Below are positions 26,689-62,069 of a stretch of DNA of 64,000 bases, in pieces (the stretch's first letter is position 1; every line of letters begins with the position of its first letter). The notes under the pieces are model-generated. The model saw only the letters and a list, made by a program, of their open reading frames with translations, was not told the origin of the DNA and did no database searches. The stretch comes from an uncultured Fodinibius sp. GTDB taxonomy: Bacteria > Bacteroidota > Rhodothermia > Balneolales > Balneolaceae. Both the position numbers and the translations under genes were made by a program. The stretch is from assembly GCA_913056235.1 (NCBI GenBank), contig CAJXMW010000001.1:1240001-1304000 (forward strand), written 5' to 3'.

Positions 26689-26706
26689 GGTAGGGCTATG
26701 ATGGGA

Positions 26707-33957: not shown

Positions 33958-33961
33958 AGGG

Positions 33962-35941: not shown

Positions 35942-36617
35942 CCGGTTTCTCCTTCTGTGTGCTCTTTGATAGTTGTTTGATGCTATCACGCAAACCCGGC
36001 ATGAGGGGAGCCAGGAAGTACGCTCCGGCTCCGAGGCCCACCAGCCACAATGCTTTGGTGAGGGTACTGTTGACACCGTTGAATGCACTTTGCGGGCTCG
36101 GCAAGCTAATCTGATACCACGGTTCGGTGGGAGGAGCATATACCCCGCTTTGTTGGCCTTGGTCGATATCCAAATCCAGCGTCATAACCTTAGAGGCTGC
36201 AAGCGGTTTGGCCTCGGATATATTGGTTTCCGTAACATTGCTGGGATGCAGCTCAAAGATGACTGGGTGATTGCGGTCCGGGCGAAACGATCGCCCGAAG
36301 ACCAGTCGCGTTTGCCCACGGCATCCGTCCCACATGCTGGTCAGGATGCGGGATATGGCCAATATCTTTCGGGATTGTGGATCGAGAGCGGCTATTACAG
36401 CATCCGGACATGATATAAGCAGAAACGAATTCCAAATGTTGCGGTACCGGTCGATTTCAATATCAACGGAAAAGGGCACCCCGTTTTTGGGTAGTCCGCG
36501 CTCCGGATACCGCCCGATAATGCGAACTTCACCTGCCTCAGAGCTAATAATATTTCCTGTAATGCCGGCCGAGCCTAGCCCGTGATCGCTATATGCGGAG
36601 TGTATGGTCTGTGTCAT
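35934..36617 (-). CDS. beta-rich protein with near-C-terminal TM
   Basis: 227 aa; TM ALWLVGLGAGAYFLAPLMPG. Confidence 0.5.
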   Translation of the reverse strand: MTQTIHSAYSDHGLGSAGITGNIISSEAGEVRIIGRYPERGLPKNGVPFSVDIEIDRYRNIWNSFLLISCPDAVIAALDPQSRKILAISRILTSMWDGCRGQTRLVFGRSFRPDRNHPVIFELHPSNVTETNISEAKPLAASKVMTLDLDIDQGQQSGVYAPPTEPWYQISLPSPQSAFNGVNSTLTKALWLVGLGAGAYFLAPLMPGLRDSIKQLSKSTQKEKPDA

Positions 36618-36618
36618 G

Positions 36619-36927
36619 TTATCTTCGTCTGGTTAAGATTCGAAATCCGATGTATCCGCCAGCAATCCATCCTAAGGTTTTACTGTTCCGGCTAAACCAT
36701 TCCCGGATCTCACCGGTGGGGTGAGGACCGGAAAGCCGCTGGCAGATTGATTGCTTTTCGGAGGATTTAATCTCGGCCCCTTTGGGGATTTCCTGCACCT
36801 GGATAGCCGGTTGCAGGTAGATCGTTTCTTCCGATGGGGAGGGGTTTGGATAGCGGCCGTTGGGAATATGGCCATCGAGATAATGAGAAATTCCTACCGG
36901 ATGGGCGGGATAAGTGACTTCGATCAT
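36619..36927 (-). CDS. small protein with C-terminal TM and basic tail
   Basis: TLGWIAGGYIGFRILTRRR end. Confidence 0.5.
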   Translation of the reverse strand: MIEVTYPAHPVGISHYLDGHIPNGRYPNPSPSEETIYLQPAIQVQEIPKGAEIKSSEKQSICQRLSGPHPTGEIREWFSRNSKTLGWIAGGYIGFRILTRRR

Positions 36928-36928
36928 A

Positions 36929-37294
36929 TTAGGATTTCTTTTTTAATAAGGTGTACATGACTGTTCCCCCAACGGCCACTACGCCGCCAATGAGTAAGAT
37001 AGATGTCATGCTGTCTCCACTGGATTTCTGGGATTGCATCAGCGCCATTTGCTGCTCAGGCGTAAGTCCTGGATGTCCAGAGTTATTGTTACCTCCATTG
37101 ATCACCCCATCAACGGTTACGGCCGTATCGGCCGCAGTCGTAAGAAAGCTTGACAGGTCATTTAAAATGCTGCCAAACTTGGTTTTCTTTGAGGTGGTGG
37201 ACCTCGTAGGAGGTAGTGAGGGACTTGTTAAGCTATAGTTAAACGGTCGGGTGGTTTGCAAGAAATCAATTTGATCGAAAGAGCTGCTGTTCAT
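36929..37294 (-). CDS. small protein with C-terminal TM and basic tail
   Basis: SILLIGGVVAVGGTVMYTLLKKKS end. Confidence 0.5.
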   Translation of the reverse strand: MNSSSFDQIDFLQTTRPFNYSLTSPSLPPTRSTTSKKTKFGSILNDLSSFLTTAADTAVTVDGVINGGNNNSGHPGLTPEQQMALMQSQKSSGDSMTSILLIGGVVAVGGTVMYTLLKKKS

Positions 37295-37303
37295 AGTGGC
37301 AGG

Positions 37304-37726
37304 TTACGCAGGTTGAGAGTTAGTTTTTTTCTTTTTGGCAATAAGCAAAATGGCCGTTCCCAGGATGGCTACGCCACCAACGGCGGCTCCCGCTATCATG
37401 GCCGTAGAAGCCGTCTGCTGTTTTTCCGCGGTATCGGTCACGTTATGCTGAAGGGCCGTCATGAGCTGCTGTTTCTCCTGCTCCATGGTTTTCTTTTCGG
37501 CCAGCTTGCGCTCGTGGGCTTTGCAGAGGGCTTGCGATTTTTCGCGTTTCCGCCGGCACCTCTTTAATGCCCCAAACATCTTGCCCCGGCAGCTTTGGTT
37601 GGCATACCGGCAGGGATCATCTTGTTCCCATCCGGCAAATCCACTTGGACTAGTCAGGTTGTTTGTAATGATCAACTGATCATCATCGCTTGTTATCGCT
37701 ACTGGTTGTATGTACGAACTGCTCAT
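37304..37726 (-). CDS. small protein with C-terminal TM and basic tail
   Basis: TAMIAGAAVGGVAILGTAILLIAKKKK end. Confidence 0.5.
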   Translation of the reverse strand: MSSSYIQPVAITSDDDQLIITNNLTSPSGFAGWEQDDPCRYANQSCRGKMFGALKRCRRKREKSQALCKAHERKLAEKKTMEQEKQQLMTALQHNVTDTAEKQQTASTAMIAGAAVGGVAILGTAILLIAKKKKTNSQPA

Positions 37727-37731
37727 AAAGG

Positions 37732-38763
37732 TCAGGAGTGGTTAAGGGCCCAATATCCGGCGCCGGTAAATGCGATTAGACCTACCGATAGCCCGCCGTA
37801 GAGGAGCCATTTCTTGGTTGTTCGTTGCTGTTGGTCTGCAAAAAAATTGTTGTCCAGACTACCAAATCTGTTCAGGTAGTCAACGGCTGGCTGTCCGTAA
37901 TTTTGGATAACTTGAGCGTACTGTTGGAGCACGGCGTTATCTTTTTGAGAAAATGAAATAACATCCGATCGAACGCCTCGGGCCATCAGATAGTCTCGCC
38001 ATTTTCCGCGCTGGATGCGCTCGTCCTTATCCTTGGCGCCAAACCATTTTGAAAACATGCTTTTCATGGTGATGCCTGTTTGCAGAGCCGTGGTTGCAGC
38101 CGTTGCAGCAGTAATCGGATCAATCCCTAAATGATTAGGCATCTTGTTGAGGAGATGATTAGATTTTTTGATAAGGGTTTCATCGAAGGCAAACCCAGGA
38201 TATTTGGCTACGGTCGTATCAAAAGATTTCCATCCATCGGGGGAGCGAAAGACGGTATAGATATGATCGTAGTTTCGCCCGGTTCGGCTTAAAATCCGAA
38301 ATCCAGTTTGAATGCCCAGGGTTTGTAGCAACGCGGCCGACAATATCGCGTGATCGTCGCAATCACCCGCCTTTTGTTTGAGCGTTACATCCGGGGATTG
38401 AATGCGTTCAATGTTCCAGGGATCCCGAACGTAGTTGATATTGTGGGTTATCCATCGGTACAGGGCCTCGGCAACCTGTTGGGTATTTCGAAGGTTAGGA
38501 AGTCCGGTGTCTCGGTTGGGGCGTATGCGACGAGTAATGGAAAGGGCCAACTTCCGAAGGTCTTCGTGGCCGGTGTATTTCGTTACAAGTCCGGAGGCTA
38601 GCCCGAGTACATGGTTAATGCCCGGATATGTCCGGCGCTGGGAAAAAATAGGGGCGGCAGCATTACCGTGTGTGGGATTTGCTGCCGCCTTATTGCTCAT
38701 CACTAAACCGTCGGTAGTGACTGCTTTTCGGGAAGGGGTGATATGAGGATAATGGCTGCTCAA
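37732..38763 (-). CDS. transglutaminase-like cysteine protease domain with C-terminal TM
   Basis: Cys-His-Asp: QKAGDCDDHAILSAALL / YDHIYTVF / SFDTTV; terminal TM KKWLLYGGLSVGLIAFTGAGYWAL. Confidence 0.75.
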   Translation of the reverse strand: MSSHYPHITPSRKAVTTDGLVMSNKAAANPTHGNAAAPIFSQRRTYPGINHVLGLASGLVTKYTGHEDLRKLALSITRRIRPNRDTGLPNLRNTQQVAEALYRWITHNINYVRDPWNIERIQSPDVTLKQKAGDCDDHAILSAALLQTLGIQTGFRILSRTGRNYDHIYTVFRSPDGWKSFDTTVAKYPGFAFDETLIKKSNHLLNKMPNHLGIDPITAATAATTALQTGITMKSMFSKWFGAKDKDERIQRGKWRDYLMARGVRSDVISFSQKDNAVLQQYAQVIQNYGQPAVDYLNRFGSLDNNFFADQQQRTTKKWLLYGGLSVGLIAFTGAGYWALNHS

Positions 38764-38987
38764 GAGCGGTAGGTGATATAGTCAAGTAAAAGTTGCAGGC
38801 CGTGCTCGGGATTACGGGTTGTTACATTACCCAGGCGCTTTGCCAATTTTGGGTCAAGGTCGCCCAAACTGATAAGTACACCTGCGAATTGACGGGAGCG
38901 TGTGATAGTCGTTATTCCCGGGTCATCCAATTCCTTGTAGATATTATCCCGAAGGCTCGTAACAGTTTGTTGGGTAATGGTTGGCAT
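38760..38987 (-). CDS. hypothetical small protein
   Basis: 75-aa ORF overlapping its neighbour. Confidence 0.4.
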   Translation of the reverse strand: MPTITQQTVTSLRDNIYKELDDPGITTITRSRQFAGVLISLGDLDPKLAKRLGNVTTRNPEHGLQLLLDYITYRS

Positions 38988-38996
38988 AGCTGTTGA

Positions 38997-39401
38997 TTAT
39001 GGTTTGGGTCCGTTGGACGTGACCAGTTTTTGCAATTCAATAATGATTTCTGTGAGGAGCGCTTTGATCTGATTGCTCACGGTGATACCGCTGAAGCGTA
39101 GCAGCTGGTCGGTAGCGAAAGGGGCAGGGATATAGGCAAGCGTAGTAGCGTGTTGCCCTAATCCATCCACAAGGGGATATACGGTTTTTGCAATGCGTTC
39201 GGCTCCTATATCCCTGCTTATCGCTTCTTCAGAAAGTAGTTTAGCCATGCGTGTCCAATCCTGTATCGTAATCGGGCGTCCATAAGACTGCATCAGTGCC
39301 AGTTGTGATTTGATGCGTTTTGCGTAGCGTCCGTAGGGCTGCGGGTAGTCGCCTAGATATTCGAGGGCCATTTTGAGTAAGGGGATATGATCAGGATTCA
39401 T
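38997..39401 (-). CDS. hypothetical protein
   Basis: 134-aa ORF in the operon. Confidence 0.4.
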   Translation of the reverse strand: MNPDHIPLLKMALEYLGDYPQPYGRYAKRIKSQLALMQSYGRPITIQDWTRMAKLLSEEAISRDIGAERIAKTVYPLVDGLGQHATTLAYIPAPFATDQLLRFSGITVSNQIKALLTEIIIELQKLVTSNGPKP

Positions 39402-39421
39402 GGCAGAGATGGGTATGATAA

Positions 39422-40423
39422 CTAAAGGGTTATGTTTGGCTGGTGGTGTCCATTGACAGCTGGAGGAGTAAAACTGCCGTTAAGAGTAGGGCCCTCTACG
39501 TCTCCGCCTTGCGGCTCCAGATGGCTGGGCATATCGGCGGGAAGGTGCCGAGGAGTCTCCTCCCCGGCACCTTTGGATTGTTCGGCTTCGTTGTTGAGGA
39601 GGGCATCTTGTTGGGGTAGGGAAGAGTTTTGTTTGGCCTGTATGCTGTTGGCTATCGAGGCTTTTAAAGCATTGGCTTGTTCGGCAGATAGTTGGTCTTG
39701 TCCGCCACCGGTCCGTTGGGCAAAGAGTCCTGAGATGACGCTAAAAAACAATGGCGCATTTTCCTCAAGCATATCTAACATGCGACTTCCGGCATCACGG
39801 CCGCCCGCTCGCTGTTCCATTTCCATGCGGAATTTTACCTTTTCCAGTTCTCCGAGCTCTTTTTCAAGGTCTTTGAGGTCTGTTCGGTGAAGTTCTTTGA
39901 GGCGGTCGATCTCATTGCGGTGGGACTCTTTCAGGTCGCCCAGCTCTTTCTGATGGGTGAGTAAGGTCGTGGTTTTGTCCTCGGCAAGTTCCCGCTTCAG
40001 ATTCATAATTTCATCGACCTGCTGGCGGATCTTACGGTCCGCATCGTGAAGTTCTCCTTCCAACCGAAGAATACGATTGCTGTAATAGTCCTCATCTTTG
40101 GTCTCCCTGGAGCCCATTGGTTGCTCGAACAGATCAGCAGCTACTTCAGCGTGTTTATTGGGTCCGTCAATCCGGAAATTAATTTCGATATCCTGGTCGG
40201 CACCGGTATGCAGGGTATAGATGCCGGGCTGGAGGCGACACATGGCCTTGGCCACGTTAAAAGGAGATCGAATATTGAACGGAATGTCCTTTTCGACGTC
40301 GATAAAGTCATCGGTTCTACCGGAAATGCGCCCGAAAATAGGCATGCCATCTTGCATTTCCTGGAGCGTGGTAGCAAAATCGCGTTGCTGGGTTTCTAAG
40401 GTATCTGGCAAATGTTCAGGCAT
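39422..40423 (-). CDS. coiled-coil protein, first gene of virion operon
   Basis: 333 aa with long coiled coil, followed by a hydrophobic stretch PLFFSVISGLFAQ. Confidence 0.55.
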   Translation of the reverse strand: MPEHLPDTLETQQRDFATTLQEMQDGMPIFGRISGRTDDFIDVEKDIPFNIRSPFNVAKAMCRLQPGIYTLHTGADQDIEINFRIDGPNKHAEVAADLFEQPMGSRETKDEDYYSNRILRLEGELHDADRKIRQQVDEIMNLKRELAEDKTTTLLTHQKELGDLKESHRNEIDRLKELHRTDLKDLEKELGELEKVKFRMEMEQRAGGRDAGSRMLDMLEENAPLFFSVISGLFAQRTGGGQDQLSAEQANALKASIANSIQAKQNSSLPQQDALLNNEAEQSKGAGEETPRHLPADMPSHLEPQGGDVEGPTLNGSFTPPAVNGHHQPNITL

Positions 40424-40447
40424 CGGTCCCGGCTTGGTTAATTTGTC

Positions 40448-40473
40448 GTGATTGTATCATTTTAGGCAATCAC
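40448..40473. promoter_or_regulatory. operator-like inverted repeat upstream of virion operon
   Basis: GTGATTG-n12-CAATCAC just upstream of the 40423 start. Confidence 0.4.
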
Positions 40474-40798
40474 CGATGCTAACGTAACACTATTTTAAAT
40501 TAGGAAAAATACCCCGGGATGGGCTGGAATAGCCTGCAATAAGCTGCCAGAGATTGGGACAGGATGGGAAAAGAAGAAACAAGAAGTGCTAATGAGAAGA
40601 GTATTTCTGAGGAAGGGAATATAGATAGATAATATTATGTGTAAGTGTTATTTGTACTACATGAAGAGCCCCGCTAGTATAAAGAATATGATGCTAAACC
40701 CTCTTAGAAAAATTGAAGGGCAATATTGCATGTAAGGATGACAATGAATAGTATTTGAACTGTATGTATAAAACGAGGTTATATCCAAACTTTCAGCT

Positions 40799-41491
40799 AT
40801 GAATGAAGAAGAGAAGAAACAAATTCAAAAAGAGCTAAATGAGATACTCGATTCTCGTGAAGATGAAATTATAGAAAATTATCCAAAAGTACGTGAGGCT
40901 TTTCAAACACCATATGGGTGGCCTGAAATAGACACTTTGAGGCACGAAGCAAGCTTATGTATAATTTTTGGTTTACATCAAGCTGCTATCACATTCATAA
41001 ATCATATGCTCGAAAATTTTTTAAAAAATTGCTTAGGATATAAAGAAGCATTTGACAACTATGATGAATCCGATCACGATACTCCTAGTGTTGACAATCT
41101 CGCTAAGTGGTTAAAACCAAATTTTGAAAAGCACGATGATAAAAACCTCCATGACACAATTGAGTTATCATTCAAAAAAGACATAATCACAGAGGGTCAA
41201 AAAGACAAACTGCACCAAATTAGAGAAAAGCTTAGAAATGCATATAGCCATGCGCAGAAGGGGAAAATTCATGGAGATACTGAAATACCAATTCAAGGCC
41301 TACATTTAAATGATGATAACCAGTTTGAAGTAGAACCAGAATCTGATCAACTGATCACTGCTCTACCTTTTATCCAAGGTCAATCCCAATACTATCATGC
41401 TAAAGCAAACTCAGTTCCATATTTTAAGTATGTAGACAATTTGGTAAGGGAAACAATGCCGAAAATTTTCCCTGATGCTGAAAATGAATGA
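40799..41491 (+). CDS. cassette 1: HEPN-like protein
   Basis: KLHQIREKLRNAYSHAQKG contains Rx4H HEPN motif after helical region. Confidence 0.5.
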   Translation: MNEEEKKQIQKELNEILDSREDEIIENYPKVREAFQTPYGWPEIDTLRHEASLCIIFGLHQAAITFINHMLENFLKNCLGYKEAFDNYDESDHDTPSVDNLAKWLKPNFEKHDDKNLHDTIELSFKKDIITEGQKDKLHQIREKLRNAYSHAQKGKIHGDTEIPIQGLHLNDDNQFEVEPESDQLITALPFIQGQSQYYHAKANSVPYFKYVDNLVRETMPKIFPDAENE

Positions 41492-41497
41492 GTTTGG

Positions 41498-41624
41498 ACA
41501 TAACCGCACATTAATGGGACAGGCATTGCCTATTCTTGCCAACCTCTCTTTTTATAGTTACTCTTTCATTTGTAAACAATTTCAAAACGTTGGTGCTTGC
41601 ACTTTATGCGCGATGCCATTAGGT
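41498..41624 (+). repeat. attC-like site 1
   Basis: ACATAAC...ATTAGGT, 127 bp; conserved arm GCACATTAATG / CTTTATGCGC with extra T. Confidence 0.65.
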
Positions 41625-41646
41625 GGTTGAAATTCAAGAGATTAAC

Positions 41647-42477
41647 ATGGTAGAAAAAATTAGATTGGTAATAAGAGTTTTCTTTTTAAAAACTTGGATC
41701 CAAATTACTGGATTGCCAGTGTTTCTGTTTTTGTGCTATTTGGTTGCACAATTGTTACAAAAGCTTCAAAAATTAGGTTTAATAACAATTAGTTTTAGTT
41801 TTGGGACACTCAATAGCTACTTGCAAATAATCTCTTCTATCACCGGTACAATAGGAGCAATCCTTATTGGATTTTTCTTTTTTAGATTTCAAACAATTCA
41901 ATCTGACCTTAAAGACTGGTATATAGAAATACAGAGAGAAGTAGATAAGTTCACAAAAATATTACATGAAATACCTAATAGATACTTTGAACTTAAACCT
42001 ATCTTAGATCGAGCTATCAAGCATCTTGAAAGCATTAAATTATATGATTATCCATTTCTTGAAGAAGAGGATTGGGAAATTATCCAACGACCATCAAACA
42101 CAATTTTCGATAGCCAAGAAATAAATTCAACAGATGAATGTCCTTATAAGATAATTGCTTCAACAGTAAGAATAGAGGAATATTTTAAACAGCTAAATAT
42201 CTCCACTATAGAAATTATCATTTCAGAATTTATTTTACACCTAATTTATAAGCTTTTTGCAATATTGATAACATCTTTAGCTTTGATGTTAATATTTAGC
42301 GTAATAAAAATTACTCATTCATCAGCTAATTATATCTACTCAGCTATTGTATTATCACTTTCATATTTTACTTTTATTGTAATCGCAGAAACTGTTTTCC
42401 ATTTTAAAGAATATTATAAAAACGTTTCTCCAGCAGAAGAAAGTGAAAAATTAACAACCACCTACCCCGCGCATTAA
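41647..42477 (+). CDS. cassette 2: membrane protein of unknown function
   Basis: Two N-terminal and two C-terminal TM segments; ATG at 41647 preferred over GTG at 41623, which lies in the recombination core. Confidence 0.6.
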   Translation: MVEKIRLVIRVFFLKTWIQITGLPVFLFLCYLVAQLLQKLQKLGLITISFSFGTLNSYLQIISSITGTIGAILIGFFFFRFQTIQSDLKDWYIEIQREVDKFTKILHEIPNRYFELKPILDRAIKHLESIKLYDYPFLEEEDWEIIQRPSNTIFDSQEINSTDECPYKIIASTVRIEEYFKQLNISTIEIIISEFILHLIYKLFAILITSLALMLIFSVIKITHSSANYIYSAIVLSLSYFTFIVIAETVFHFKEYYKNVSPAEESEKLTTTYPAH

Positions 42478-42586
42478 GGAGACATGCCTCGCCAATTCTA
42501 TGCTGCTCTTGGTTTTAAGCCTCTTCTTTCGTTAGTTGCCAAATAAGCAGTAATACGTATGCAGCTTATTCGCAAGGTCGTTAGGT
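42460..42586 (+). repeat. attC-like site 2
   Basis: ACCTACC...GTTAGGT, 127 bp; GCGCATTAAG / CTTATTCGC arm. Confidence 0.75.
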
Positions 42587-42600
42587 AAAAATTTCTAGCA

Positions 42601-44010
42601 ATGGATAATAAACCTTTCATCCAAGAGATAGATCGGCTATTTAATGTTACCAATGGAGATAAGACCGCTGAGAATATAAGGTTTAAAGTTACTTTTGATT
42701 ATTTGAGTGAAGGTTTATTAGAATGTGAGCTAATAGGTAATCAAACCCATTTCGATAAAGTTTCTGAACTGTATTTCCCAGGGATTAAAGAAAAAAGTTT
42801 GAAAGTTTATTCCCCCAAGGATTCCAATCGAGATATTTCTTTTGACATTATTAGTATTCCTAGTATCCCATTGATGTCAGGAGGAAGAGATATAGTTCAA
42901 ACCTATGATCATATCTCAATTGAAATAGATAATCTGAGAATGGTTAATAGTTATTCAAACGATATTGAAAATCCTAAGATCCATTATCATTTCACTAAAC
43001 CAAATTCTTACTGGCATTACATTAACAGTTATAAACTAAATGAAGAAACAGGAGATGTCGAATATGAGAATCCTCTATTGAAGAATCATGATTTTCCAGG
43101 TCTGATATCTTTTAAAAGACAAAAAATTAAGGACGTATATGAGTTTAGGGATAATTCAGCAATTATTGAGACATCGCAAAATGCTCTTGTTTTTGAACCA
43201 AATAAACATTTTTCTCCTGAAGAATTGATTAAGCTTAGTGATCCAATCGTCAATATTATTGAGAAGCAATTTTCATTACTTCAAAGGAGACGTTCAGTTT
43301 GGTATAAGTATGTAATAGAGCTAGACGATAGGGCTATTATCTTTATCAAGAATTATGAGAGGTCAAAAGACCCGAAAGTTCCCCATCACCGGTTTATAGT
43401 TGATATCAGCGATTCGCGAGAATTTTTGAATAAGACATTTCCACAATTTCAACAGTATTTAAATAATGGCTTAGATCTTATTTCGCCGATCAATTATTAT
43501 TTATCTGCTCTAGAAGTAAAGTATATAGAGGCAGCTTTCGGTATGTTATTTTTTGCCTTAGAAAAGCTTAAAGATGAAATCTGTAAGGCCTATCCAAATA
43601 AATTCAGAAGTCAAATATTCACTGAAGAATCAAATATAAGTTTTGATGAATACCGTGCTTTATTCAAAGATTTAACAAAAGAATATATTGATGATAAAGA
43701 GACAAGGAAACTACTTTATGAAAAGTTGTTGGGGCTAAACCGCCCTTCTTTTAAACAAAGTTTGAAAGAGATATTATCTCAATTTCAGGTTAAATGGAAA
43801 GATCTATATGTATTAGACGATGATTTGAATTTTATAGACCTTAGAAATAAACTTTTCCATTCAAATACTGACATAGACAATAATCTACTATTTAAGGAAA
43901 AAGTAAGGCTTAAAGCTGTTTTTGAAAGAATTATACTTAGTCTACTTGGATGGGAAAATATTGAAAAAGTGCCTCAAGAAAGCCTACTAGACATCTTAAA
44001 TGAAACATGA
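42601..44010 (+). CDS. cassette 3: protein with C-terminal HEPN-like motif (ApeA-like architecture)
   Basis: 469 aa; FIDLRNKLFHSNTDID carries Rx4H motif. Confidence 0.5.
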   Translation: MDNKPFIQEIDRLFNVTNGDKTAENIRFKVTFDYLSEGLLECELIGNQTHFDKVSELYFPGIKEKSLKVYSPKDSNRDISFDIISIPSIPLMSGGRDIVQTYDHISIEIDNLRMVNSYSNDIENPKIHYHFTKPNSYWHYINSYKLNEETGDVEYENPLLKNHDFPGLISFKRQKIKDVYEFRDNSAIIETSQNALVFEPNKHFSPEELIKLSDPIVNIIEKQFSLLQRRRSVWYKYVIELDDRAIIFIKNYERSKDPKVPHHRFIVDISDSREFLNKTFPQFQQYLNNGLDLISPINYYLSALEVKYIEAAFGMLFFALEKLKDEICKAYPNKFRSQIFTEESNISFDEYRALFKDLTKEYIDDKETRKLLYEKLLGLNRPSFKQSLKEILSQFQVKWKDLYVLDDDLNFIDLRNKLFHSNTDIDNNLLFKEKVRLKAVFERIILSLLGWENIEKVPQESLLDILNET

Positions 44011-44013
44011 TTT

Positions 44014-44142
44014 TTATAACTAGTTCGCGCATTAAGGGGACACCTCGTCTACTGGTTGCAGCTCTTTGGTTTAAAGCTCCTCTTTCGTTAGTTGCTAATT
44101 CAACATTTATGTATGTGCACCTTATGGGCAAGGTCGTTATAC
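44014..44142 (+). repeat. attC-like site 3
   Basis: TTATAAC...GTTATAC, 129 bp; GCGCATTAAGG / CCTTATGGGC arm. Confidence 0.75.
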
Positions 44143-44164
44143 TACCTAAAAGCTAAATCAATAA

Positions 44165-45235
44165 ATGATCGTCATGAGAAAAGTACTCTTAAGTTCATTA
44201 TTTGTTTTCCTATTTGTAACCCAAGTTCAAGGCCAAGATTGGCTTGATGTTGAATGGGGAAGTTCAAGAGAAGAAGTTCACTATTCAGAAACAGGTCAGT
44301 TAATTCAGTGGAAATTAGGAGGGATTTACTATGAAGAAACAATTAATGGCCAAAGATATGCTAGAAAATATCGTTTTATTGAGGATTCACTCGTTGCTGC
44401 TACACGTTATCCCACAATAGATCGAACCAAATTAGAATCAAAAAATTTGATGGAGCGCATAAAAAAAATTCGAGATAAACAGAGCCAATATATTAAAAAC
44501 TTGGGTGAACCAGATTTTATTGATAATTCAGATGAGCTTTCAGTTAAACACTATGGTTGGAATTTAGATAGCACATTTGCAATTGCTGAAGTAGATAAAG
44601 ACGATGAATCTGGCAATGTCTGGTATTCCATTGGTCAGTTATCAGGAAACGAGCGAAGAAAACGATATAAAAATGATAAAGGCGCTCTACGTAAAAAATT
44701 CCGTCAATTAACTGAAGATGAATTTTCTTTCGAGGAAGACCCAGACGTACCAGCAGATCTGAAAGACAACCCTTCTTTATCAATTGAAGATAAATTATTG
44801 GCAATTCATGATGAAATGGAAGGAAGGACTATTTATCGAGACCCTTCCACAGGAAATGAGAAGTCCGATAATGAATTATCTCTTATTCTTATTGAAAAAG
44901 AGAATAACCTGAATCTTATTCTCAATAAAACCTACAGCGCCTCTGATTGGCTCTTCATAAATTCTATGATTGTTTTAGCTGATGGTGAACGCTTTGAGTT
45001 TAATGACATTTCAAATCGAGTCAATCGTGAAACGACAAGCATTGGTATAAAAGAAACGTACCAAACATCTGTTCAAGGTAAATTAGACAAAGCAGTACGG
45101 GCCATTGCCAATGCGGACGAAGCAAAAATCAGACTTAAAGGGAAGAGTTCATACAGAGATATTGAAATTTCCGAGAGAGAAAAAAGGGCAATGGAAAATA
45201 TCTTAGCTTTATATGACAAAAAACAAAATGACTAG
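44165..45235 (+). CDS. cassette 4a: secreted protein of unknown function
   Basis: Signal peptide MRKVLLSSLFVFLFVTQVQGQ; intact 356-aa ORF. Confidence 0.6.
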   Translation: MIVMRKVLLSSLFVFLFVTQVQGQDWLDVEWGSSREEVHYSETGQLIQWKLGGIYYEETINGQRYARKYRFIEDSLVAATRYPTIDRTKLESKNLMERIKKIRDKQSQYIKNLGEPDFIDNSDELSVKHYGWNLDSTFAIAEVDKDDESGNVWYSIGQLSGNERRKRYKNDKGALRKKFRQLTEDEFSFEEDPDVPADLKDNPSLSIEDKLLAIHDEMEGRTIYRDPSTGNEKSDNELSLILIEKENNLNLILNKTYSASDWLFINSMIVLADGERFEFNDISNRVNRETTSIGIKETYQTSVQGKLDKAVRAIANADEAKIRLKGKSSYRDIEISEREKRAMENILALYDKKQND

Positions 45236-45237
45236 AT

Positions 45238-45620
45238 ATGTCTGAAGACGAAGATTTAGAGATAGAAATCTTGCAGCATATTGATGCTATGGATAAAGAA
45301 GAGCTTTATAAAAATAACCAAAACCTTGAAATACAGGGATATGAAGATAAGACAGTCACTTATAAAGCTTTTGAAATGAAAAAAGATGGTCTAATTGAAG
45401 CCTTTACTAAGGATCATAACACTGGAGTAGATGGTGTCATAGTTAAAGGTCTAACCCAAAAAGGGAAACAGTTTTAAGAGAATATAGAGAAACATGGTTC
45501 GAAAAATTATTTCCTCTTTTCAAAGAAAAATTTTGGGAGGAATTGGCTGAAAACTTAGCCAAATGGACGATATATCTCATTTTTCTCGGAATTGGAGTTT
45601 TAATCGGCTATTTCTTGTGA
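45238..45620 (+). pseudogene. cassette 4b: wHTH-like small protein, likely frameshifted before a C-terminal TM
   Basis: 79-aa ORF ends ..LTQKGKQF*; another frame continues LREYRETWFEKLFPLFKEKFWEELAENLAKWTIYLIFLGIGVLIGYFL* to 45620. Confidence 0.5.
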
Positions 45621-45644
45621 AGATTTATTGAATTTAAACCGGTA

Positions 45645-45774
45645 ATATATCTCGTGCATTTAAGGGAGCGGACCTCGCCTATTATTTGCCCGTTTTTGGT
45701 TTTTCAGCTCTCCATTCGTTATTTATCAATTTAATTTTCTTTTCGCGAGCTCTTTAAGCACAATGCTATTAGGC
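45645..45774 (+). repeat. attC-like site 4
   Basis: ATATATC...ATTAGGC, 130 bp. Confidence 0.65.
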
Positions 45775-45797
45775 ACATATAAAATATTCATTAATTC

Positions 45798-46550
45798 ATG
45801 GAAGAGACTAGTTCGTTAATAATTTCCCAAGCAACTGGAAAAGCACTTGATAAAATTTGGGACAAGTTTAAGGAGTCAGTTTTATACCGTTATTCTAGAT
45901 ATCGATCATTACGGTTTTTCTACACTTTCTTAGGAATATATAAAGAAGAAATTGAAGCAGACGACTTTGAGAATCGAATTTTCACAAATGATAAATTGGA
46001 AAAAATTCTAGAAGATGATAATAAAAGTAAAATATTATTTGAAGCATATCGAAGGGTAGCTTTTTCTGCTTCTAAGGATCTTGGACCTGCAATTATTGGG
46101 TTATTGACATCGGAATTAATTTTAGAAAATCGCTTTGCTACAGAGGAAGAAGAAAGGATATTTCAAGCAGCTGAATCCTTATCAGATCAGGAATTAATAG
46201 AATTTGAAAGACATTGTGCAAAAGAGTTTGAAGAAGGCCAAGATGATTTTGAATTAGAGTTAGATAAAAAATGGATTGACTCTAATTGGAATAAGAATGA
46301 ACAGGTTTATATATCTCCAGTTAATCTCGGTTCAGTTTTGGGAACTTGGGCCTTAAAACTAAAAAATATCGGAATTATTACAGAATTTACCACTGATAAA
46401 ACTACTGAGTATTTTGAGGATTCAGAACGTCATATAGACGAAGATGGTGAAGTCAGGGAAATAAAATCATTTATTAAAATTGATCACGAATATAATAAGT
46501 TTTGTAAACTTATAAGCCGGTCTCGAGACTATTTGAATTTCAAACAATAA
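45798..46550 (+). CDS. cassette 5: unknown protein
   Basis: Intact 250-aa ORF, cassette-type placement. Confidence 0.55.
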   Translation: MEETSSLIISQATGKALDKIWDKFKESVLYRYSRYRSLRFFYTFLGIYKEEIEADDFENRIFTNDKLEKILEDDNKSKILFEAYRRVAFSASKDLGPAIIGLLTSELILENRFATEEEERIFQAAESLSDQELIEFERHCAKEFEEGQDDFELELDKKWIDSNWNKNEQVYISPVNLGSVLGTWALKLKNIGIITEFTTDKTTEYFEDSERHIDEDGEVREIKSFIKIDHEYNKFCKLISRSRDYLNFKQ

Positions 46551-46554
46551 ATGT

Positions 46555-46659
46555 GACTAATCCGCCTTAACCCCCCCTTAACTTGCCAATTTTTGGCTTT
46601 TTAGTTCTCCGTTAATTATTTAGAAGAGAAACATTTTTTCGTGAGGAATGTCGCTACAC
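46555..46659 (+). repeat. attC-like site 5
   Basis: GACTAAT...GCTACAC, 105 bp, shares TTTTTGGCTTTTTAGTTCTCCGTTA core with the other sites. Confidence 0.55.
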
Positions 46660-46694
46660 CTAAAAGATCAAAATTTTAAATCGAATACACGGTA

Positions 46695-47348
46695 ATGAAA
46701 TTTTATTATCTACTGGCTTTTTCCTTGTTAATGATCAGTTCTTGTGGCAAAGAGGTTAGGGAGGAAGTGACAAATCGATATGAAGGTGGCGAGAAAAAAG
46801 TTGTTGTGAAGTATCAGGGAACTGGATCAGAAGAAAAAATTTTAGAGAGGCTGACCTACAGTAAAAGCGGAGAATTAATAAAATTTGAAGATTTAGAATC
46901 TGATTCAGTAAAAAACTACATTGATTTAAATCCGGAGCTACAAAAAGCTGCAGGATTAAAAAAATATTTGCAAGGTACTTGGCACAAAGAACTTTCATCA
47001 AGTGATGATTTAAAAAGAATAGTTTTCAACGCAGATACCCTGAAAGTTTACAATACATTCATTGACCCTATTTTAGGGGAACCGGAAAGAAAAGATACAT
47101 CAAGAGCAAAAAAGGTTTGGTTAGTTAATTATCTAGATGATCAAAAATTGGTCGTGAAAGAAAGGTTTTCTGAAACTTATAAGGATTTTTCTCCAGCTAT
47201 GCCCGACACGACGGTGACTTATGATAGTGATGATCCGGAAAGAATTTTAGATCCCCAAGATGATTGGGTAATAGAAATTGTATTTATTGATTCAGGCTCT
47301 TTTAAAAGCGAACTTTTAGACAAATCTAAAAGTACTTATTCAAAATAG
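46695..47348 (+). CDS. cassette 6: lipoprotein of unknown function
   Basis: Lipobox MKFYYLLAFSLLMISSCGKE. Confidence 0.65.
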   Translation: MKFYYLLAFSLLMISSCGKEVREEVTNRYEGGEKKVVVKYQGTGSEEKILERLTYSKSGELIKFEDLESDSVKNYIDLNPELQKAAGLKKYLQGTWHKELSSSDDLKRIVFNADTLKVYNTFIDPILGEPERKDTSRAKKVWLVNYLDDQKLVVKERFSETYKDFSPAMPDTTVTYDSDDPERILDPQDDWVIEIVFIDSGSFKSELLDKSKSTYSK

Positions 47349-47501
47349 GTGTGTAGGTACAGCCCGCCATTTTATTACACCGCTTATTTCTTTACTTAAA
47401 ACTCTAAATTTTAGAATAGAAGTGTTCCCACCTAACGGGTCTTTCCCTGTTACTCTTTAAGAGTAAGAATCAGGGTTTAACAAAGGGCGCGAGTTAATAA
47501 A

Positions 47502-47553
47502 ATTAATCTTTCGGGTTTTAATATGCGATTAATTTAAACTATCGGGACTTAAG
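47502..47553. repeat. left copy of 52-bp imperfect direct repeat flanking fic
   Basis: attaatctttcgggttttaat and tttaaactatcgggacttaag, 31 bp start-to-start. Confidence 0.7.
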
Positions 47554-47567
47554 GCATATGTATGGAA

Positions 47568-49052
47568 CTAGTAAGGCAGGCGTAACCGAATACCCTCCTG
47601 GTCAGCTTCGGTTGGATCCATAAAGGCATTGGTGGCTTCCATCTGAGCTCGTGCTTCATCGTAATTGTCCCAACTGATAGCTTGCACATACTTTTGACCA
47701 AAGTCGAGGGTTCGGATCAAAGCATCTGATTGCTGGTTGTGAGTTAAAGCTTTTAAGGCAGCCAAGTAGTTATTACGGTAAACCGTGGGGATAATAATTT
47801 TTTGTTGATCGGCGGCAACGAGTTCTGCATTCATCATGATGCGAGCTATACGACCATTGCCGTCCGTGAACGGATGCACTTCGCTAACCAGGAACATCAT
47901 AAATACCGCTTTCTGGAAGGGGTATTCCAAACCGCGATAAATTTCAAATCCACGTTCCAGGGTAGCCGGGACTAGCTCAGGCTTTACAAACTGAGTGCTG
48001 CCGGCCACATTCGTTTTGGTTTTAAATTCTCCAGGTTTTTTGTCTTTCCGCAGAGCCATCACGGTAGAATGCCGATTCTTTAACGAGGCAATAAACTCGT
48101 CGAAATTCTCGGGTGTTTTTGCCATTTCCGAGTAGTTGGAAACAATCCGAAAGGTCCCCATTACATCATGGGCATCTTCGGGACGCTCAGCTGGTATCGC
48201 GTTGTTAAAAACGATATCGGCCGCCTCATCTACTTCAAATTCGGTTCCTTCAATAAAATTGGAGAAATAGGCTTCGAAGAATGAGAGGTTTATTCGTTTG
48301 TCCTGCGAAAGGTTGGACGCAGAACGAGTGTGAGGAGCAAAATCCGACAGATCTTCAAAAAGTTTGAGAAACAGATCTACGCGATCGGGGTCATACGGCT
48401 TTTTAGATTTCCGGGCTTTACCGACATCTGATTTAATATTGGAGTCGCGCGTGCCCTGCAGGCTACCAATAAGATCGTCAAGCTTTTCATATTCTTCTTG
48501 CATATCCAGCTGTTGGGCAATTTCTCGGGCTCGGTCGCGGATACTATTGACATGGTCGGCGCCGCGCACCCGAAAGAGTTTATCCAAGCGCTCTTCTATC
48601 TCTTCTTGTCGAAGGGTTCTTGGAACCGATCCCTTGCGGGCTCGGGAAGGGCGCATGTTTTCAATATAGGCTCTGGGTTCGGAGCTAATGTGGAGTCCGT
48701 TAATAAAAGGACGGTCGCTTTCTAACGGGTCATGTCCTTTACGCGGATTGAAAATCAAGCCGGGAATTTCCGTTATACGCTTTTTGGATGAGACGATAAA
48801 AACCGAACCATCTTCCGCCGGTTTATTTTCCAATGCCGTCCGGTCGGCAATGAGTGCATCGGGATAATATTCTGATAGCAGATTGACCCAATGCCGTTTG
48901 ACAATAACTTCTGGATCATCGGTCAGATTCTTCGTGTATAGGCGGGACCCGATCTTTTTAAGTTCTCCGCTTGATACAGCCTGTGATACCTGGGAAGAAA
49001 TATCCGTATGGGAGACGAATACTTCCGGCATGTCATCTAAAAAATTTGCCAT
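47568..49052 (-). CDS. Fic domain protein with N-terminal wHTH-like region
   Basis: Fic motif HPFTDGNGRIAR; upstream inhibitory-type motif SNFIEG. Confidence 0.9.
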   Translation of the reverse strand: MANFLDDMPEVFVSHTDISSQVSQAVSSGELKKIGSRLYTKNLTDDPEVIVKRHWVNLLSEYYPDALIADRTALENKPAEDGSVFIVSSKKRITEIPGLIFNPRKGHDPLESDRPFINGLHISSEPRAYIENMRPSRARKGSVPRTLRQEEIEERLDKLFRVRGADHVNSIRDRAREIAQQLDMQEEYEKLDDLIGSLQGTRDSNIKSDVGKARKSKKPYDPDRVDLFLKLFEDLSDFAPHTRSASNLSQDKRINLSFFEAYFSNFIEGTEFEVDEAADIVFNNAIPAERPEDAHDVMGTFRIVSNYSEMAKTPENFDEFIASLKNRHSTVMALRKDKKPGEFKTKTNVAGSTQFVKPELVPATLERGFEIYRGLEYPFQKAVFMMFLVSEVHPFTDGNGRIARIMMNAELVAADQQKIIIPTVYRNNYLAALKALTHNQQSDALIRTLDFGQKYVQAISWDNYDEARAQMEATNAFMDPTEADQEGIRLRLPY

Positions 49053-49077
49053 TTAAGCTACCTTTTTAAGGTAATTT

Positions 49078-49129
49078 ATTAAACTTTCGGGATTTAATAA
49101 ATTATTTATTTAAATAATCGGGTTTTAAT
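49078..49129. repeat. right copy of 52-bp imperfect direct repeat flanking fic
   Basis: attaaactttcgggatttaat and tttaaataatcgggttttaat, 31 bp start-to-start. Confidence 0.7.
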
Positions 49130-49295
49130 ATCGGTAATGGAGGAGGGGTAAACATACAAAAACTGCGAAAACTATCTATGTGTGGTAGCTGTCTAAACTT
49201 GCTTTGGTTGCACGATTGGTACATCAATATCAAAAAAATCCATTATTGATTGCTATGGCATCCCGAAAGGTTTCGGCGTCTTCGTGTAGGTTCAT

Positions 49296-50021
49296 CTAAA
49301 CAATATTCCAGTTTTGAGCTGTAGGTAAGCTATTGCCAAGACTACCGAATTCATAACTCGATAAGGGATTCAAGCTATTCTTCAATTTTGGAAAAGTGTT
49401 ATTGAACTCCTGGTAGGTAAGCAAGGCTCCCAGCAACGCGCGAACCCGGGGAGGGTATTGCAAGGCAAAGGTAATTAGCGTATTTCTATCGGGTGTACTC
49501 AAATCATTGATGCGGCTTTGGAGTTGCCTGATAGCATTATCGATATCAAGGTCTGGAATTTTCTTAAAATCCTTTATGGCATCCAGAATCTCTAGGAAAC
49601 GGATATTCTTGTCCGTAGGATCTACGTAACTTTTGACCGATTTTATTTTCAGGTTATCGATCTTTGTATTGATCCTTTTTTTATTGCAGGCCAGAGTAAC
49701 GGTTTTGGGCACCTGGGTCGTAAGCCCCATTCGATTGTACAAGGATAAACCGGTGATATAAGCAATACGATTGTTACCTTCGTACATATAGGGTTTGAGC
49801 AGCTGCTCTTCATTGGGCTTTAAATCGCCAAACAACGACTTCTTGGGCTTATAAAATAGACCTTTGGAAATCCTTTTTACGACACCCTTGGATATCAACC
49901 GCTCGATGGCCTTGGTTGCAGCCCCATATTCGCTATTATCTATGCCGAGCTGGTCATATTTAAATGTGGTTCCTTCGTCAAAGGAGGAAACTTTGTCTTT
50001 TATTCTTTTTGCAGTACTCAT
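49296..50021 (-). CDS. AbiEi/DUF6088-like antitoxin-type protein (no partner toxin adjacent)
   Basis: N-terminal wHTH ..AIERLISKGVVKRISKGLFYKPKKS.., AbiEi-like YITGLSLYNRMGLTTQVPKTVTLA. Confidence 0.65.
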   Translation of the reverse strand: MSTAKRIKDKVSSFDEGTTFKYDQLGIDNSEYGAATKAIERLISKGVVKRISKGLFYKPKKSLFGDLKPNEEQLLKPYMYEGNNRIAYITGLSLYNRMGLTTQVPKTVTLACNKKRINTKIDNLKIKSVKSYVDPTDKNIRFLEILDAIKDFKKIPDLDIDNAIRQLQSRINDLSTPDRNTLITFALQYPPRVRALLGALLTYQEFNNTFPKLKNSLNPLSSYEFGSLGNSLPTAQNWNIV

Positions 50022-50258
50022 AATACCTAGTTATGCTAATGGCCTTTCAACAGCTTGTATAAATATAGTATTTAATCTTTAAGAATGTCAAGTTTTTTAC
50101 GTTATTTACTTGACATAGTGAAGGTATAAATTTCCCGTTTAGGTGTTTTAGATATAAACGCATGTGGAATGCTAGTAAGGTGAATTTTAAATCAATAGGC
50201 GGGACAGTTCTGCAGTGTTAGCAGGTGCATTATTCTGTTAAAAGGTAAAGAATAATTC

Positions 50259-50714
50259 TTATTCTAACTCATAAAATTTGTTTCCTGTCTCTGAAACTAA
50301 TGAGCATGATTGCCTATAAATTTCTTCAGTATTAAAATCGATTGCTCCAATTATTACCAATAGAGCAAAATTGTTATGTGATGATGCAATCTCTAAAAGA
50401 GATGATATATCTTTATAGCTGGGTTTGGGTATTTTTTGGGGATGTGAGTGCCATTCTCCCAAGTACTTTATATTTTCAGCCGAATTTGCTAGCTCCATTT
50501 CCAAAAACATATCAATGTAGTCAGGATCAGCTCTAAAGTATTCCCTTCTATGAATAGCTTTTGGACCTCCATCGCTAGCTTTCTTAACATGTACAATATC
50601 TTTTTTTGTGGCACCTAACAAAACTCCTCCTGTTTCTTTCAAGCCAAATTTCCGGATTTCTGCTTCGAAGAGCTCTAGGACTTGTTTGTTAAAGATTATT
50701 CCTGAGTACTGCAT
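50259..50714 (-). CDS. JAB/MPN metalloprotease (deubiquitinase-like)
   Basis: JAMM motif: TGGVLLG..; EWHSHPQKIPKPSYKDISS (HSHP-x7-S-x2-D). Confidence 0.9.
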   Translation of the reverse strand: MQYSGIIFNKQVLELFEAEIRKFGLKETGGVLLGATKKDIVHVKKASDGGPKAIHRREYFRADPDYIDMFLEMELANSAENIKYLGEWHSHPQKIPKPSYKDISSLLEIASSHNNFALLVIIGAIDFNTEEIYRQSCSLVSETGNKFYELE

Positions 50715-52327
50715 ATATTACACTCTGCGTCTAGCTCATGGTTGGTGATTTCCCACTTAAAAGGTTTCATTTCTTTTGATCCCATAGGCCCATGCCAATA
50801 ATATTGATTTCCATTTGAAGAAGGATAAGTCGATTCTTCTTCACTAAGTAATTCCTGTAATGCAATACGACTTGCTTGAAGTGCAATCTCTTTAGTATCA
50901 ATTTCTGAGCCTGGTAAAGGCGGACTCGAGCAACTCCCATATTCCGGAGAGAGTTCGTTTAATTCAAACTCTCCATCAGGCTTTGGTAACGTATCAAGGT
51001 TTTGATTCGCTAAGCATCTTAAACAAGGAGTTTCTTGGTATTTCACAACCTGTATAGAACCTGAAAACCCCCCTTGCGAAACTCTGCCAAAAATAAATGG
51101 TATATCAAATTGGGGAGTATATAAATCATTGATCATATAGTCTACAGAATCTTCCGCTGTAAGTACCAAGCAAAGATCACTACTTGAAAGACTTTTTTCT
51201 AACAGACCATCGTCATCTAAAACATTTACGTGATAGCAATTAACATTAATATTTGGATTAGATCTTAATATAAGACGTTTCCCAACTTGAACCTTAGGCT
51301 CACCAATATAAAATAGATCAGCGGCATGCCGTACGGAATTGCCTATCTCAAAAGTATCTTTGTCAATTAAATCAAAATTACCAACCCCGTTTCTTGCAAG
51401 TGACCTCGAAACTTCACTTCCTATCGCTCCAATCCCAATTACTGTAACCTTTTTATCTTTTAAAATTTGATCATCGAACAGATCTTTTGTGCGATGGTAA
51501 AGCTCTCGGTCAATATTCCGGCACAACAAATAATTTAATTGTACTCCTCTTTGATTTCTAGCAGTTTTAAAGAAGTGCCACGGGTTAGGATCATCCGGTA
51601 AATACAAACCAATATTTGGTATGGCTCCCTGATTGAAATCTTCACCAAAATTATTTTTTAGGATTTTAAATAGTTTTTTCCCATTAGATGATTCAAATAA
51701 ATTTTTGAACGTAATTCCATTATCAAACTTATACCATTTGAAGACTTCCTGGCCTACTTGTAAACCAAATGTCTTGTCTTGCAAGACATTAGTTTCGAGG
51801 ATATAATAGTTAGGCTTAAATTGTGTAAGAACAAATTTCCCCGTCCTAGCATAACTTGGGAAATTAAAATCCTCTGGTAAAAGTACTTGTCCAACCTGCT
51901 TAAGTGGGGCAGTGGCTTCGTCTACAATCTCATCTGGGGAAAACCCTTCCTCTGAATGAACTGAAGAAAGCCATTTCTGTGATCTCTTCAAAACCCGACC
52001 AACGTTATGGGTTTTACTATTCCAGTCAGCGGTTCGCATTAAGCACATGGCCCCATCCTGGTACTGATTACCCTTATTAAAATGTTTTACATTACCATTA
52101 TCTATTGGTAAAACTTTAGGCGGAGCTGCTGGATATTTGGTCGGAAAAACTATTCTTAGAGTTTGGTATTTATTTTCATCAAACTCTAAACGTCCCGATA
52201 CGACAATCCTACCATTCTTTTCTTCAAGACTCGAAAGTTCAAATATCCCTTCTAAACCTTCTTTTAGTGTACTTTTCTCTGCCTTAAAGAGATTTTTCCT
52301 AGATTCATGCCATCTGTAAGTCTCCAT
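50696..52327 (-). CDS. E2-E1 fusion (UBC-like + ThiF/E1 adenylating domain)
   Basis: E2: FPTKYPAAPPKV..HFNKGNQYQDGAMCLM; E1: VTVIGIGAIGSEVSRSLARNGVGNFDLIDKDTFEIGNSVRH, PCLRC. Confidence 0.9.
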   Translation of the reverse strand: METYRWHESRKNLFKAEKSTLKEGLEGIFELSSLEEKNGRIVVSGRLEFDENKYQTLRIVFPTKYPAAPPKVLPIDNGNVKHFNKGNQYQDGAMCLMRTADWNSKTHNVGRVLKRSQKWLSSVHSEEGFSPDEIVDEATAPLKQVGQVLLPEDFNFPSYARTGKFVLTQFKPNYYILETNVLQDKTFGLQVGQEVFKWYKFDNGITFKNLFESSNGKKLFKILKNNFGEDFNQGAIPNIGLYLPDDPNPWHFFKTARNQRGVQLNYLLCRNIDRELYHRTKDLFDDQILKDKKVTVIGIGAIGSEVSRSLARNGVGNFDLIDKDTFEIGNSVRHAADLFYIGEPKVQVGKRLILRSNPNINVNCYHVNVLDDDGLLEKSLSSSDLCLVLTAEDSVDYMINDLYTPQFDIPFIFGRVSQGGFSGSIQVVKYQETPCLRCLANQNLDTLPKPDGEFELNELSPEYGSCSSPPLPGSEIDTKEIALQASRIALQELLSEEESTYPSSNGNQYYWHGPMGSKEMKPFKWEITNHELDAECNICSTQE

Positions 52328-52329
52328 GG

Positions 52330-52605: not shown

Positions 52606-52720
52606 AACGCTGAATATTTCTGTTTTAATTAGTTAGTAAATCAGAGTTTAAAAAAATAATCCAGTGCTTTAACGCATGGATTTCTGTTTTATTATATAAG
52701 AAAATCAGAATTAAGTCAAA

Positions 52721-53323: not shown

Positions 53324-53386
53324 AGAATCTTCTGATTTACCATTATAGTGAAAGAGAATATATTGTTTATACTATTCTCTTACAAA

Positions 53387-54253: not shown

Positions 54254-54260
54254 CTAATTA

Positions 54261-58103: not shown

Positions 58104-58190
58104 GTTTATTTATTTACTAACCAACTTTTTGTTTGACCTCATTCTAAGCACTGGAAGGGGAACAAGCAAAAACACATATAGCTATTGAAG

Positions 58191-62060: not shown

Positions 62061-62069
62061 GGTAATGTG

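What the first reader, a model, noticed from the sequence alone, without database searches (positions are those of the whole stretch)
40779..47430. Six-cassette integron-like array in the accessory region, without an integron integrase
Seen: six gene units, all on +, flanked by minus-strand genes, separated by related spacers of 127, 127, 129, 130 and 105 bp. Each cassette's first bases are complementary to its own tail. C1 head GTTATATCCAAACT vs tail AGTTTGGACATAAC (13/14). C2 TTAGGTGGTTG vs CAACCACCTAC (10/11). C4 TTATACTACC vs GGTAATATATC. C5 TTAGGCACAT vs ATGTGACTAA. C3 and C6 match with small gaps. Spacers share cores such as TTTTGGTTTTAAGCTCYTCTTTCGTTA. In sites 1-3 the 5' arm (GCGCATTAAGG type) pairs with the 3' arm leaving one extra T, like the extrahelical base of attC hairpins. 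Established: integron cassettes carry attC (R'' RYYYAAC ... R' GTTRRRY), and R' is completed by the next cassette's head, so head/tail complementarity is diagnostic. Inference: this is a CALIN-type array carried by a virus-like element. Some cores deviate from GTT (ATTAGGT, ATTAGGC, GCTACAC).
Basis: partly seen in the sequence, partly recalled or inferred. Interest (0 to 1): 0.92.

Follow-up and report, generated by a model that had tools for sequence, protein, structure and literature searches.

The report
Integrase-less integron inside a provirus
A tailless, membrane-type provirus in a salt-loving Fodinibius bacterium carries its own integron landing site followed by six gene cassettes but no integron integrase, and similar orphan landing sites with cassettes are scattered through the genus, which suggests that one host integrase may serve many gene-capture platforms, some of them on viruses.

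Summary
Cassette head/tail complementarity is the best of all 720 pairings. The same spacer type recurs 28-30 times in this genome and in all 11 congeners searched. In one well-assembled congener more than 25 copies form a canonical array beside intI, so these are the genus's attC sites. (1) The genome has an intact integron integrase, on contig C6 (466 bits). (2) The array is not a plain CALIN: an attI profile built only from intI-linked sites of other genomes matches 40621-40781 (E 2.6e-11) and ends exactly where cassette 1 begins. (3) The "virus-like element" is a ~45.6 kb tRNA-Arg-associated provirus colinear with Salisaeta icosahedral phage 1. Most copies carry attC units at the same edge and orientation of its cargo bay. 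The window's attC cores are decayed (0/5 keep both, against 55/61 beside intI), so the array is probably frozen or weakly mobile. Beyond the finding, 12 Fodinibius genomes hold about 45 orphan attI units but only about 13 intI genes. Phage integrons and CALINs are known (Qi 2023); a fixed attI platform on this virus type I found in no paper searched.

The parts
40621..40778 (+). attI-like recombination site (type B), ending G^TT at the start of cassette 1
   Evidence: nhmmer profile of four intI-linked attI sites (G003, G005, G009, G010): E 2.6e-11, 42.5 bits, positions 4-163 of 163; R3 genome search E 2.6e-12
40779..41618 (+). cassette 1; ORF 40799-41491 (230 aa, weak DUF4145 / CARF-HEPN-like matches)
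   Evidence: head/tail complement AGTTTGGAYATAA; Pfam E 1.2e-4 below cutoff, PADLOC E 3.7e-5
41487..41632 (+). attC 1 (R' ATTAGGT, core lost GTT)
   Evidence: model R1 E 1.1e-28 in own genome; cores
41619..42580 (+). cassette 2; ORF 41623-42477 (hydrophobic stretches)
   Evidence: head/tail complement CAACCACCTA; no Pfam family above cutoff
42446..42594 (+). attC 2 (R'' CCTAC, R' GTTAGGT)
   Evidence: R1 E 2.5e-31; cores
42581..44136 (+). cassette 3; ORF 42601-44010 (469 aa, Apea-like HEPN domain)
   Evidence: Pfam PF18739 26.6 bits over cutoff 24.4; absent in 150 relatives
44006..44150 (+). attC 3 (R' GTTATAC, altered R'' spacer)
   Evidence: R1 E 3.8e-31
44137..45768 (+). cassette 4; ORFs 44165-45235 and 45238-45477 (DUF2513)
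   Evidence: Pfam DUF2513 31.4 bits over cutoff
45637..45782 (+). attC 4 (R' ATTAGGC, degenerate)
   Evidence: R1 E 2.9e-30; cores
45769..46653 (+). cassette 5; ORF 45798-46550 (250 aa, no family)
   Evidence: head/tail complement TAAATGTGACTAA
46546..46667 (+). attC 5 (R' GCTACAC, R'' ACTAAT, degenerate)
   Evidence: R1 E 2.5e-19; cores
46654..47430 (+). cassette 6; ORF 46695-47348 (217 aa, lipoprotein-like start), with a very degenerate terminal site about 47345-47430
   Evidence: head/tail match TAGGTGT; shared right flank begins at 47457-47503 in congeners; terminal site not found by the attC models
19165..64000 (-). host element: provirus related to Salisaeta icosahedral phage 1, continuing ~770 bp past the window; modules: structural 19165-40570, cargo bay 40570-58640, replication/integration 58640-64770
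   Evidence: co-linear copies in 6 congeners plus a second copy in this genome; 11 genes co-linear with SSIP-1 gp33-gp54
33962..35245 (-). ATPase homologous to SSIP-1 gp40 (annotated structural ATPase)
   Evidence: tblastn E 4e-23, phmmer E 1.8e-28
25446..26066 (-). homologue of SSIP-1 virion protein gp45/gp46
   Evidence: phmmer E 5.1e-18
63365..64000 (-). C-terminal part of the 390-aa tyrosine integrase of the provirus (not IntI)
   Evidence: PF00589 E 1.1e-31; 36.6 bits against the IntI model, far below its 265-bit cutoff

Best explanation
Window 40621-47430 is an integron cassette array with its own attI but no intI. It lies at the left edge of the cargo bay of an integrated SSIP-1-like tailless provirus in a Fodinibius (Balneolaceae) genome. 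Shown: the sites are the genus's attC; the array begins at an attI of a type found beside intI in other Fodinibius; one intact IntI is encoded elsewhere in the genome; attC units occupy the same edge and orientation in most provirus copies examined, with different cassettes; the window's own attC cores are largely decayed. Inferred: cassettes were delivered to the provirus attI by a host IntI acting in trans, and the provirus carries them as cargo (HEPN-domain cassettes, next to Fic, ThiF/E2-like and methylase genes, suggest defence functions). In this genome the array now moves rarely or not at all.
For: Head/tail complementarity: best of 720 pairings in the window; over 90 cassettes of fetched arrays, own 20.8 vs swapped 11.7, z 31, 0 of 20000 permutations. 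Same attC type genus-wide and beside intI in G002. L''/L' covariation. attI at 40621-40781 from a profile that excludes it, repeated by R3. IntI TIGR02249 466.6 bits vs cutoff 265. Provirus copies and modules, SSIP-1 co-linearity, tRNA-Arg sites. attI in provirus copies of G005, G007, G009 and a partial one in G001; attC in G003, G007, G008, G009, weak in both G005 copies, plus two on the G001 contig with the shared right flank. Cassette-level difference between G003 and G008 bays. Cassettes 1 and 3 absent in 150 relatives. Cassettes shared at 97-98% between platforms of one genome.
Against: None of the window's five attC keeps both AAC and GTT cores, and reconstructed attC hairpins of the window fold no better than shuffles (mean z 0.0, n=4) whereas sites beside intI do (mean z -2.1, n=15). 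No window cassette was found at another platform. The host's own intI-linked attI is type A while the provirus attI is type B, so whether this IntI recognises it is unknown. Two provirus copies (G000 C1:398-438k and G002) lack detectable attI and attC.
Confidence: 0.85

Rival explanations
1. Relic: the provirus once captured a segment of a chromosomal integron (attI plus cassettes) by ordinary recombination; cassettes have since decayed and IntI never acts on it in trans.
For: attC cores decayed in the window (0/5) and in other proviruses (1/11); two orphan attI elsewhere (L229, L238) still carry the 5' ~100 codons of intI.
Against: Two different attI types at nearly the same edge of the same provirus family (type B in window, G005, G007; type A in G009), and mismatch with the host's intI-linked attI type in three of four genomes. 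G003 and G008 differ by one cassette with near-identical flanks. First attC of G009's provirus is intact.
Confidence: 0.3
2. A CALIN without attI, seeded by IntI-mediated cassette insertion at a non-attI genomic (attG-like) site.
For: No intI beside the array (one search places it on C6); attG-type insertion is known from the literature (own knowledge).
Against: A full-length attI match ends exactly at cassette 1, and related provirus copies carry stronger attI matches at the same place (G005 81 bits, G009 67 bits).
Confidence: 0.06
3. The 40621-40778 segment is a conserved viral promoter and only resembles attI because both are AT-rich promoters.
For: AT-rich, with a large composition-bias correction on the profile hit (19.3 bits; 42.5 bits remain).
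Against: The match runs 160 bp to the G^TT boundary; 39 of 45 orphan attI units have an attC downstream on the same strand, median 962 bp; such units lie in many unrelated contexts.
Confidence: 0.05
4. An ordinary fixed operon with repeat-type spacers, no integron.
For: Genes co-oriented.
Against: Same spacers beside intI with unrelated genes between, head/tail covariation, the tested cassette genes absent in relatives while flanks are shared.
Confidence: 0.01

Closest known systems
Chromosomal integron with IntI, attI and attC array (here Fodinibius G002 C2:545-577 kb)
   Same: Same attC type, same one-way cassette order from an attI, same head/tail rule
   Different: No intI beside it; sits in a provirus; attI of another type than the host's own; attC cores decayed
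CALIN (cluster of attC sites lacking an integron integrase; IntegronFinder usage)
   Same: attC array with no integrase nearby
   Different: Has an attI in front of cassette 1
Integrons and CALINs in phage genomes (Qi et al. 2023, PMC9892861)
   Same: Phage-borne attC arrays; [quoted passage not shown]
   Different: Those are reported as individual phage cases; here an SSIP-1-like tailless virus family carries attC units at one conserved place in several host species
[quoted passage not shown]
   Same: 11 genes in the same order incl. ATPase gp40, 2319-aa gp43, gp44, gp45, gp47, gp48, gp54
   Different: Here integrated at tRNA-Arg with a defence-like cargo bay; SSIP-1 itself was not searched for attC or attI

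Membership tests
Integron cassette array (attC sites) | Cassette head complementary to its own tail (R'/R'') | tested here: met
   Best of 720 permutations in the window; z 31 over 90 cassettes
Integron cassette array (attC sites) | R' GTT and R'' AAC cores | tested here: not met
   Window: GTT 2/5, AAC 0/5 by aligned columns (sites 1 and 3 contain AAC shifted out of the column); sites beside intI 60/61 and 55/61. Read as decayed members, not intact ones
Integron cassette array (attC sites) | Imperfect palindrome with L''/L' pairing and an extra base on the L'' side | tested here: met
   6 sites; 117 sites, 90.9% paired, 8/9 pairs with two-sided changes
Integron cassette array (attC sites) | Stable single-strand hairpin | tested here: inconclusive
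   Window sites no better than shuffles; intI-linked sites mean z -2.1
Complete integron | intI next to attI | tested here: not met
   Only intI in the genome is on C6:301-1239, a different contig
Complete integron | attI site before the first cassette | tested here: met
   40621-40781, E 2.6e-11
CALIN | Two or more attC with no integrase nearby | tested here: met
   Five attC, no intI in the window
SSIP-1-like virus | Homologues of the virion ATPase and virion proteins in the same order | tested here: met
   gp33-gp54 homologues, co-linear
SSIP-1-like virus | Produces tailless membrane-containing particles | not testable with these tools
   Needs induction and electron microscopy
Functional cassette exchange in trans | IntI recombines provirus attI/attC | not testable with these tools
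   Indirect support only: shared cassettes between platforms of one genome

The most novel reading that the evidence does not exclude
Fodinibius runs a distributed integron: one (rarely more) chromosomal integrase serves several dispersed attI platforms per genome in trans, and tailless proviruses have taken up such platforms at a fixed cargo site, so that viruses load and exchange host gene cassettes, probably including defence genes, without carrying an integrase.
Probability: 0.45. Interest if true: 0.85.

Novelty: new variant of a known kind. Interest (0 to 1): 0.74.

Why it matters
Integrons are normally described as an integrase next to its own attI and array. About 45 attI units with cassettes and no neighbouring complete intI in 12 genomes of one genus, some on proviruses, would separate the platform from its enzyme. 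It would make trans-acting integron recombination between chromosome and virus directly testable in culturable, harmless halophiles. It also gives a route by which a tailless virus family could acquire and swap accessory genes one cassette at a time. If cassettes are not exchanged in trans, the same data still give a well-replicated series of attC decay without a linked integrase.

Tried and rejected
Rfam search of the array: nothing meaningful. Folding of the linear sites alone: no signal, explained by linear sites pairing R'' and R' of different cassettes and by decay. Viral-contig scan with the ATPase: no relatives. tRNA search in the window found none; tRNA-Arg genes appear at the ends of several provirus copies. 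Search for window cassette genes in all loci fetched by then and, for cassettes 1 and 3, in 150 relatives: none. Idea that the left junction is an attG-type insertion: dropped when the attI profile matched. Idea that the host's own intI array supplied the provirus attI: not supported, as the types differ. Literature search for orphan attI terms returned only irrelevant papers among those listed, and no held paper mentions Fodinibius with integrons; absence in this library is not proof of novelty.
Full report
WHAT WAS CHECKED. The six co-oriented units are present as described. For each cassette I compared the reverse complement of its head with every tail. The correct pairing scored 99, the best of all 720 permutations (mean 69). 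Single cassettes vary: 1 and 2 are strong, 3 and 4 weak on their own. The L''/L' arms pair with one extra T on the L'' side.

ARE THE SPACERS attC? A covariance model was built from the five window sites plus one related site at C1:1228617, about 11 kb left of the window (R1). It finds 28-30 sites in the whole genome: clusters on C1 (this array), C4 and C2 (both ending at contig ends), C5 and C1:702-704 kb, and single sites. In the well-assembled congener G002 more than 25 sites run from C2:545 to 575 kb on one strand, and intI lies divergently at C2:576659. So the sites are the attC of the genus's chromosomal integron. R1 contains the window's sites, so their own scores are circular; the sites beside intI are independent. 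Over 90 cassettes from fetched arrays, head and tail complementarity is 20.8 for own pairs against 11.7 for swapped pairs (z 31, 0 of 20000 permutations; own pair ranks first for 45 of 90). On 117 aligned sites the L''/L' helix is 90.9% paired with two-sided changes in 8 of 9 pairs, 0 of 500 shuffles (alignment fitted to the model).

THE INTEGRASE. The genome does encode an integron integrase: C6:301-1239, TIGR02249 466.6 bits against a cutoff of 265, an open 321-aa frame. It begins about 280 bases from the end of contig C6, with its attI and the start of a first cassette between it and that contig end. C4 ends in an array in the orientation expected for its continuation, and so does C2, so the main integron is probably broken by assembly.

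AN attI IN FRONT OF CASSETTE 1. Aligning the segments between intI and the first cassette in nine genomes shows two attI types: type A (G000, G002, G006, G007, G008) and type B (G003, G005, G009, G010). A profile of the four type B sites, none from the window, matches window 40621-40781 over nearly its full length with E 2.6e-11 in 0.9 Mb, ending in the GTTA at the start of cassette 1. The same profile matches provirus copies in G005 (81 bits), G007 (33 bits) and partly G001 (19.5 bits); the type A profile matches G009's provirus (67 bits). The window match is one of the weaker ones (42.5 bits after a large composition correction). Its position, orientation and the stronger homologues in the same place carry the case.

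THE ELEMENT. Window 19165 to about 64770 is co-linear with copies in G002, G003, G005 (two), G007, G008 and G009 and a second copy in this genome; G001 has the left edge. It ends at tRNA-Arg sequence and has its own tyrosine integrase, distinct from IntI. Its ATPase matches Salisaeta icosahedral phage 1 gp40, and 11 genes are co-linear with SSIP-1 gp33 to gp54, including proteins annotated as structural in that virus. SSIP-1 is a membrane-containing phage of a hypersaline host (PMC6356626). The conserved structural module ends near 40570; the variable bay runs from there to about 58640; the replication/integration module follows. In the bay come the array, then Fic, DUF6088, a ThiF/E2-like gene and a split methylase with DUF7149/DUF7814.

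FIXED PLACE, DIFFERENT CASSETTES. attC units follow the same edge of the structural module, in the same orientation, in the window, G007, G008, G003 and G009, and weakly in both G005 copies; G001 has two on the contig bearing the shared right flank. Two copies (second copy in this genome; G002) have none that the models find convincingly. DNA comparison of the window's bay with 60 relatives hits only the attC spacers and the flanks, not the cassette genes. Cassettes 1 and 3 have no homologue in 150 relatives. G003 and G008 share a first cassette (362 aa, 90% identical DNA) and then carry different second cassettes (244 vs 277 aa); the shared flank resumes four bases after the last attC in G008. 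This is a cassette-level difference inside the provirus.

STATE OF THE ARRAY. Both core triplets are intact in 55 of 61 sites beside intI, 12 of 23 in orphan arrays, 1 of 11 in other proviruses and 0 of 5 in the window (alignment columns, so shifted cores count as lost). Reconstructed attC hairpins of the window fold like shuffles, those beside intI better (mean z 0.0 vs -2.1). Most likely the window's array is no longer, or hardly, mobile.

BEYOND THE FINDING. Searching 12 genus genomes with the two attI models gives roughly 60 to 70 matches, some of them partial or overlapping, against about 13 intI genes. I fetched the orphans: of 45 units scored, 39 have an attC downstream on the same strand, median 962 bp. 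Two keep the 5' 100 codons of intI. Contexts recur between species. Near-identical cassette segments occur on different platforms of one genome: G003 C1/C6 (97.7%), G007 C1:167k/786k (97.0%), G010 beside intI/C1:44k (98.1%). This favours action in trans but does not prove it; duplication would give the same pattern.

NOVELTY. Phage-borne integrons and CALINs are published (Qi et al. 2023, PMC9892861). No held paper mentions Fodinibius with integrons. I rate this a new variant of a known kind: integrase-less attI platforms, on a conserved site of a tailless provirus family.

Noticed in passing
12 Fodinibius genomes, loci L204-L243 (e.g. G006 C1:1449233, G010 C1:44244, G000 C6:148571, C5:38809, C1:704392): About 45 orphan attI units of 150-160 bp with a sharp 5' edge and cassettes downstream, versus about 13 intI genes in the genus.
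   Followed up: partly
G003 C1/C6, G007 C1:167k/786k, G010 SCI/C1:44k (loci L215, L243, L223, L106, L099, L100): Cassette segments 97-98% identical shared between separate platforms of the same genome.
   Followed up: partly
C1:1228617-1228764 and 1228942-1228988 (L018 8617-8988): A lone attC lies about 180 bp from a 47-bp exact copy of the tRNA-Arg end found at the provirus right end.
   Followed up: no
L107 about 7687-8716 (G009 provirus): An ORF resembling an IS110-type transposase (by eye) abuts an attC whose 5' part is missing, as if the element had inserted into attC.
   Followed up: no
G006 C1:699563 (L229) and G008 C33:227663 (L238): Orphan attI next to truncated intI (first ~100 codons), pointing to loss of intI from former complete integrons.
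   Followed up: partly
L243 2449-3903 (G003 C6): A type B attI appears split by about 1.3 kb of other DNA (matches to model 3-91 and 81-163).
   Followed up: no
G011 (same genus): At least 20 attC matches and several attI matches but no intI at E 1e-60; incomplete assembly or true loss.
   Followed up: no
window 26707-33957: 2416-aa ORF with RelA/SpoT-like N-terminal match and DarB-like/methylase-helicase matches, homologous at its C-terminus to SSIP-1 gp43.
   Followed up: no
window 50696-52327: Single ORF with E2-like and ThiF (E1-like) domains in the provirus cargo bay.
   Followed up: no
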